NCBI GenBank assembly: GCA_028824555.1
Contig: JAPPDJ010000143.1
Span: forward strand, 18,655 to 82,654
From: Gammaproteobacteria bacterium
GTDB lineage: Bacteria > Pseudomonadota > Gammaproteobacteria > Pseudomonadales > Azotimanducaceae
DNA: 64,000 nucleotides
Reading direction: 5' to 3'
Positions within the stretch are counted from its first letter, which is position 1. Every line of letters starts with the position of its first letter. The translations under genes and the position numbers were made by a program. Below the pieces are notes generated by a model. That model did no database searches and was not told where the DNA came from. It was given only the letters and a program-made list of their open reading frames with translations. This document shows positions 20,840 through 21,190 of this stretch, piece after piece.

Positions 20840-21190
20840 CTAAAGCAGTTCCTCCACCTTCTCCGAAGGCCGGGCGATGACGGCCTTCTCGCCGCGCACG
20901 ATTATGGGGCGTTGCATCAGCTTTGGATGCTCTTGCAGCAGGCCCACCACTGCGTCTCGGGTGGTGTAGTCAGCGGCGTTCAGGCCCAGCGCCTTGAAGT
21001 TGCGGTCGTTGCGGACGAACTTGGCCGGCGGCTCGCCGACAAGGTCGATGAGACGCGCCATCGTGGCCGCATCAATGGGGGTCTTGAGGTATTGAACGAC
21101 ATCGAACTCGACGTCGCGCTCGCGCAGGATGTCCAGCGCGCCGCGTGATTTGCCTCACCCCGGGTTGTGATAGACGACGATGCGATCCAT
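20840..21190 (-). CDS. arsC: ArsC-family arsenate reductase with in-frame TGA at codon 12 (candidate selenocysteine)
   Basis: MDRIVVYHNPG[TGA]GKSRGALDILRERDVEFDVVQYLKTPIDAATMARLIDLVGEPPAKFVRNDRNFKALGLNAADYTTRDAVVGLLQEHPKLMQRPIIVRGEKAVIARPSEKVEELL. NPxCxKSR active-site motif with TGA (21157..21155) in place of Cys; otherwise open. Confidence 0.8.

What the first reader, a model, noticed from the sequence alone, without database searches (positions are those of the whole stretch)
20840..21190. Candidate selenocysteine arsenate reductase: in-frame TGA exactly at the ArsC catalytic Cys
Seen directly: from ATG at 21190 (minus) the frame reads MDRIVVYHNPG-TGA-GKSRGALDILRERD... and is open for 104 further codons to a TAG at 20840. 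The single stop (21157..21155) is codon 12, where the NPxCxKSR motif of glutaredoxin-dependent ArsC carries its catalytic Cys; the rest (YLKTP, FVRNDRNFKALGL, HPKLMQRPIIV, RPSEKVEELL) is an intact ArsC. A decay mutation falling by chance on this one codon of 117 is unlikely. Sec-containing ArsC-like proteins have been reported in marine metagenomic selenoproteome surveys (from memory). The ORF track lost the first 43 codons because it treats TGA as stop.
Basis: partly seen in the sequence, partly recalled or inferred. Interest (0 to 1): 0.92.

Follow-up and report, generated by a model that had tools for sequence, protein, structure and literature searches.

The report
Selenocysteine version of arsenate reductase ArsC
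The in-frame stop codon in this arsenate-reductase-like gene is almost certainly read as selenocysteine, because close relatives keep it at the same catalytic position and the genome carries the whole selenocysteine machinery; this protein type has been known since 2005, and the only unusual part is that the RNA signal for reading it seems to lie farther from the stop codon than usual.

Summary
A 117-codon frame (21190..20840, minus strand) reads as ArsC with one in-frame TGA at codon 12, the catalytic Cys position. The other ArsC catalytic residues (R60, R94, R107) are intact.

The Sec reading is strongly supported. The same codon is TGA in 28 distinct homologous genes from several genera and TGC in 17 close relatives. 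The genome has tRNA-Sec, selA, selB and selD. In the Sec genes only, an 18-nt hairpin (loop AGUU) is frozen at synonymous sites: 0-1 changes per codon, against about 7 elsewhere in the gene.

Sec-containing ArsC with a UxxS motif is already a described family (Sargasso Sea 2005; GOS 2008; reviews 2022 and 2026), so this is a new member of a known kind.

Two points go beyond that. The conserved hairpin's loop starts 46 nt after the UGA, outside the 16-37 nt of the published bacterial SECIS model, while a SelW gene of the same genome has a hairpin at 22 nt. Also, the gene has no arsenic-resistance neighbours and no Acr3 or ArsB was found in the genome, so arsenate reduction as its real function is unproven.

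The parts
20840..21190 (-). arsC-like selenoprotein gene, 116 aa with Sec at residue 12 (PGUGKSR), stop TAG
21155..21157 (-). in-frame TGA, predicted Sec codon at the ArsC catalytic Cys position
   Evidence: TGA in 28 and TGC in 17 homologues
21098..21115 (-). distal hairpin GACGUCG-AGUU-CGAUGUC, most likely SECIS; loop 21108..21105, loop G 21107, loop begins 46 nt after the UGA
   Evidence: 196/196 pairs formed in Sec genes against 86/119 in Cys genes; synonymous freeze; pair counts
21117..21145 (-). GC-rich proximal hairpin region (codons 16-25) at canonical SECIS distance, pairing register not consistent between homologues
21244..22164 (-). ORF read as secF, 53 nt upstream of arsC (name from recognition of the sequence and its place after secD; only its presence beside arsC in near-identical assemblies was tested)

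Best explanation
This is a selenocysteine-containing member of the glutaredoxin-dependent ArsC family. SelB and Sec-tRNA(Sec) decode UGA codon 12, giving a 116-aa protein with Sec as the attacking residue of the UxxS active site. By analogy with Cys-ArsC, the selenolate attacks an oxyanion (arsenate in the textbook case) in a pocket formed by R60, R94 and R107, and glutathione/glutaredoxin resolves the adduct. The recoding signal is most likely the distal hairpin GACGUCG-AGUU-CGAUGUC, whose loop starts 46 nt after the UGA. Shown here: TGA conservation, Cys pairing, catalytic residues, the Sec machinery, and Sec-specific RNA-level constraint. Inferred: actual Sec insertion, that the distal hairpin is the element SelB binds, and arsenate as substrate. 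The confidence given is for the selenoprotein reading; about 0.65 for the distal hairpin as the SECIS or its main part, and about 0.6 for arsenate as the real substrate.
For: TGA at codon 12 in 28 distinct Sec genes and TGC in 17 Cys genes, with no other stop inside. tRNA-Sec is called by two methods; selA (516 bits) and selB (383 bits) are adjacent on one contig with selC; selD scores 244 bits. Of 24 TGA-ArsC genomes tested, 21 have full-score selB and 18 tRNA-Sec; the exceptions are mostly incomplete drafts. R60, R94 and R107 are invariant in both forms. Codons 26-31 have 1,0,0,0,0,0 synonymous changes on the tree against a mean of 6.9 at 42 other conserved codons. All seven hairpin pairs form in 28/28 Sec genes. 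The invariant loop G comes from E28 (GAG) in every Sec gene, where 13 of 17 Cys genes have Asp.
Against: No experiment shows Sec insertion. Hairpin covariation is thin: one double change, equalled by 51 of 500 shuffles, because the helix hardly varies. Its spacing lies outside the consensus bacterial SECIS model (PMC13188914). G018 and G092 carry the TGA gene but gave neither a full-score selB nor tRNA-Sec. No arsenic genes lie beside it, and Acr3 and ArsB were not found.
Confidence: 0.95

Rival explanations
1. A decaying pseudogene or sequencing error: the TGA is a real stop or an artefact.
For: A single in-frame stop would look like this in one genome alone.
Against: Same TGA in 28 distinct genes with otherwise intact frames, in independent assemblies including single-contig genomes; synonymous constraint in the following codons.
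Confidence: 0.01
2. Selenoprotein, but the SECIS is the proximal GC-rich hairpin (codons 16-25) at canonical distance, and the distal hairpin is an accessory element, or both form one composite element.
For: A proximal hairpin is predicted in the window; codons 16, 17 and 23 are also low in synonymous variety in Sec genes, and R23 is specific to Sec genes.
Against: Pairing register shifts between homologues, with 72.6% and 86% of cells paired against 100% for the distal hairpin; the window's predicted proximal loop ACAU has no G in its first two positions, as the bSECIS model requires (PMC13188914).
Confidence: 0.3
3. The protein is a Sec-ArsC-fold oxidoreductase that does not reduce arsenate in vivo but acts on another oxyanion or disulfide.
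For: No ars neighbours recognised in the loci examined; no Acr3 or ArsB in a 96% complete genome; TIGR00014 score slightly under cut-off.
Against: The complete ArsC catalytic set R60/R94/R107 is retained at the numbering of the plasmid enzyme (numbering from general knowledge); NCBIfam's arsenate reductase model is the best match, above the Spx and related models.
Confidence: 0.35

Closest known systems
Sec-containing arsenate reductase (ArsC, COG1393/TIGR00014, UxxS), first reported from the Sargasso Sea (PMC1088965; 14 genes), then GOS (PMC2398784, 'ArsC 1', 77 genes), listed in PMC9312934 and PMC13188914
   Same: Same protein family, Sec at the catalytic Cys, UxxS motif
   Different: Here placed in near-complete genomes of one gammaproteobacterial family; the conserved hairpin lies 46 nt from the UGA; the published SECIS drawing could not be viewed for comparison
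Glutaredoxin-dependent ArsC with Cys (plasmid R773 type; solved structures 1i9d, 1jzw)
   Same: Relationship by sequence, catalytic arginines 60, 94 and 107, YHNPxxxKSR motif
   Different: Sec for Cys, flanking Gly11 and Gly13, no ars operon
Consensus bacterial SECIS (bSECISearch model, PMC13188914)
   Same: Small loop with G in its second position followed by U; stem of 4-16 bp; free energy below -7.5 kcal/mol
   Different: Spacing 46 nt instead of 16-37

Membership tests
Sec-ArsC (UxxS selenoprotein family) | In-frame TGA aligned with the catalytic Cys of Cys homologues | tested here: met
Sec-ArsC (UxxS selenoprotein family) | UxxS active-site motif | tested here: met
   U-G-K-S in the window; UGKS, UGQS or UGNS in homologues
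Sec-ArsC (UxxS selenoprotein family) | Sec-decoding machinery in the genome | tested here: met
Sec-ArsC (UxxS selenoprotein family) | SECIS-like hairpin after the UGA | tested here: met
   Sec-specific synonymous constraint
Consensus bacterial SECIS model | 16-37 nt between UGA and apical loop | tested here: not met
   46 nt for the conserved hairpin
Consensus bacterial SECIS model | G in first two loop positions; stem 4-16 bp; loop 3-9 nt; at most -7.5 kcal/mol | tested here: met
   AGUU loop, 7 bp in all; folding energies -7.7 to -13.1 in 27 Sec genes
ArsC arsenate reductase (TIGR00014 equivalog) | Score over the curated cut-off | tested here: not met
   104 against 106.05 bits; a near miss with full-length alignment
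ArsC arsenate reductase (TIGR00014 equivalog) | Catalytic residues R60, R94, R107 | tested here: met
ArsC arsenate reductase (TIGR00014 equivalog) | Arsenate reductase activity | not testable with these tools
   needs purified Sec protein

The most novel reading that the evidence does not exclude
Sec-ArsC genes of this gammaproteobacterial family use a distal SECIS whose SelB-binding loop is 46 nt from the UGA, and the same SelB also reads a SelW gene at the usual 22 nt. Bacterial Sec insertion would then tolerate a spacing outside the current model, perhaps because a second hairpin shortens the gap, and such genes could be missed by SECIS-based predictors.
Probability: 0.5. Interest if true: 0.55.

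Novelty: new member of a known kind. Interest (0 to 1): 0.4.

Why it matters
It gives a well-documented genomic home to a selenoprotein family first known from metagenome reads, with Sec and Cys forms side by side in one genus (two genomes carry both). That makes it a clean natural experiment on why Sec replaces Cys. If the distal hairpin is the true SECIS, the spacing rule used to predict bacterial selenoproteins is too narrow. In plain gene calling the gene is cut to its last 73 residues, without its active site.

Tried and rejected
Three-way junction closed by UGAG pairing with CUCA at codon 35: dropped, because codon 35 is CTC in only 20 of 28 Sec genes. A conserved proximal hairpin with fixed pairing: two registers tested, neither consistent. 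The conserved 18-mer as a general or viral motif: the five exact matches in viral contigs have no TGA at the right place, nor does the second, two-mismatch match in the window at 56952..56969. Co-occurrence of selB with the TGA form as a discriminator: useless here, since most Cys-form genomes of the family tested also have selB. A conserved gene neighbourhood: none found.

Full report
What is there. On the minus strand 21190..20840 a 116-residue ArsC frame is interrupted once, by TGA at 21157..21155, codon 12. The protein matches Pfam ArsC (E 1.1e-13), NCBIfam arsC over its full length (104 bits, cut-off 106.05) and solved ArsC structures. Codon 12 is the catalytic Cys of this family, and the three catalytic arginines fall at 60, 94 and 107 and are invariant in both the Sec and Cys forms (that these are the residues of the plasmid R773 enzyme is from general knowledge). 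Plain gene calling yields only the last 73 residues.

Is it a selenoprotein? The genome (4.2 Mb draft, 96% complete) has tRNA-Sec over the Rfam cut-off, also called by ARAGORN with anticodon TCA. It has selA and selB side by side on the same contig as selC, and selD. A search of genome contigs and of 207 genomes of the family found the same gene elsewhere: 30 of 47 close matches carry a single TGA and 17 have none. After removing duplicates there are 28 Sec and 17 Cys genes. All Sec genes have TGA at codon 12 and all 17 Cys genes TGC. They come from several genera, and some from single-contig genomes, so error and decay are excluded. Of 24 TGA-ArsC genomes searched, 21 have selB over the cut-off and 18 tRNA-Sec; most of those lacking one are incomplete drafts, and two (G018, G092) gave neither. 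A tree of the 45 proteins needs at least three Sec/Cys label changes. The tree includes the columns under RNA constraint, so that number is approximate, and the direction of change was not settled.

The recoding signal. In the Sec genes codons 26-31 read GAY/GGC-GTC-GAG-TTC-GAT-GTC (GCC once) with almost no synonymous variation: 1,0,0,0,0,0 changes on the Sec tree against a mean of 6.9 at 42 other conserved codons; none of 20,000 resamplings was as low. As RNA this is a 7-bp hairpin with loop AGUU. All seven pairs form in 28/28 Sec genes (196/196), against 86/119 in the Cys genes. One pair has a gene changed on both sides (A-U to G-C in L064) and one-sided changes in others, but formal covariation is not significant because the helix hardly varies. 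The invariant loop G is the third base of Glu28, which is Asp in 13 of 17 Cys genes; it looks as if the RNA dictates the residue. The G-U pair is kept as G-U in every Sec gene, which argues for recognition as RNA rather than as a DNA palindrome (inference). The loop starts 46 nt after the UGA. The published bacterial model asks for 16-37 nt, although it is acknowledged that some known SECIS elements do not fit (PMC13188914). Between them lies a GC-rich stretch (codons 16-25) that can fold at the canonical distance, but its pairing shifts between homologues. I take the distal hairpin as the likelier SECIS, with a composite or proximal element as the rival. A SelW-like gene with CxxU in the same genome has a hairpin with loop G at 22 nt, so the genome's SelB presumably handles the canonical distance too.

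What it does. By family chemistry Sec12 would attack arsenate and glutaredoxin/GSH would resolve it (general knowledge, not tested). Against a dedicated arsenic role: the gene follows an ORF read as secF in this species only, no ars genes were recognised near it in the other loci viewed, and Acr3 and ArsB were not found in the genome (the control panel rang in other genomes, but a draft can miss genes). So 'ArsC-type Sec oxidoreductase' is safe, while 'arsenate reductase in vivo' is only somewhat more likely than not.

Known or new. Arsenate reductase with UxxS was one of the new selenoprotein families of the Sargasso Sea study (PMC1088965, 14 genes), was found 77 times in GOS (PMC2398784), and is listed in later reviews (PMC9312934, PMC13188914). 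Three phrases that would name an experimentally studied Sec-ArsC occur in no paper of the library, which is weak evidence that none exists. The finding is therefore real, correctly interpreted, and a new member of a known kind. The long SECIS spacing is the only part that could be new.

Noticed in passing
L089 (G000:C85:68649-68852, minus): A second selenoprotein gene in the same genome: SelW-like (PF10262) with in-frame TGA in a CMSU motif and a hairpin loop 22 nt after the UGA.
   Followed up: partly
L059 and L078 (G146); L072 and L079 (G583): Two genomes of the same genus carry both a Sec and a Cys ArsC copy.
   Followed up: partly
L052 and L073 (G092): One genome carries two TGA-containing ArsC copies but gave neither full-score selB nor tRNA-Sec (draft, 81% complete).
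   Followed up: no
L066: A Cys form with PACGKCR, i.e. a second Cys at the Ser position (CxxC), unlike all other members.
   Followed up: no
window 21244-24444: arsC lies 53 nt behind an ORF read as secF, in a run read as yajC-secD-secF; this position is seen only in the window's species and near-identical assemblies.
   Followed up: partly
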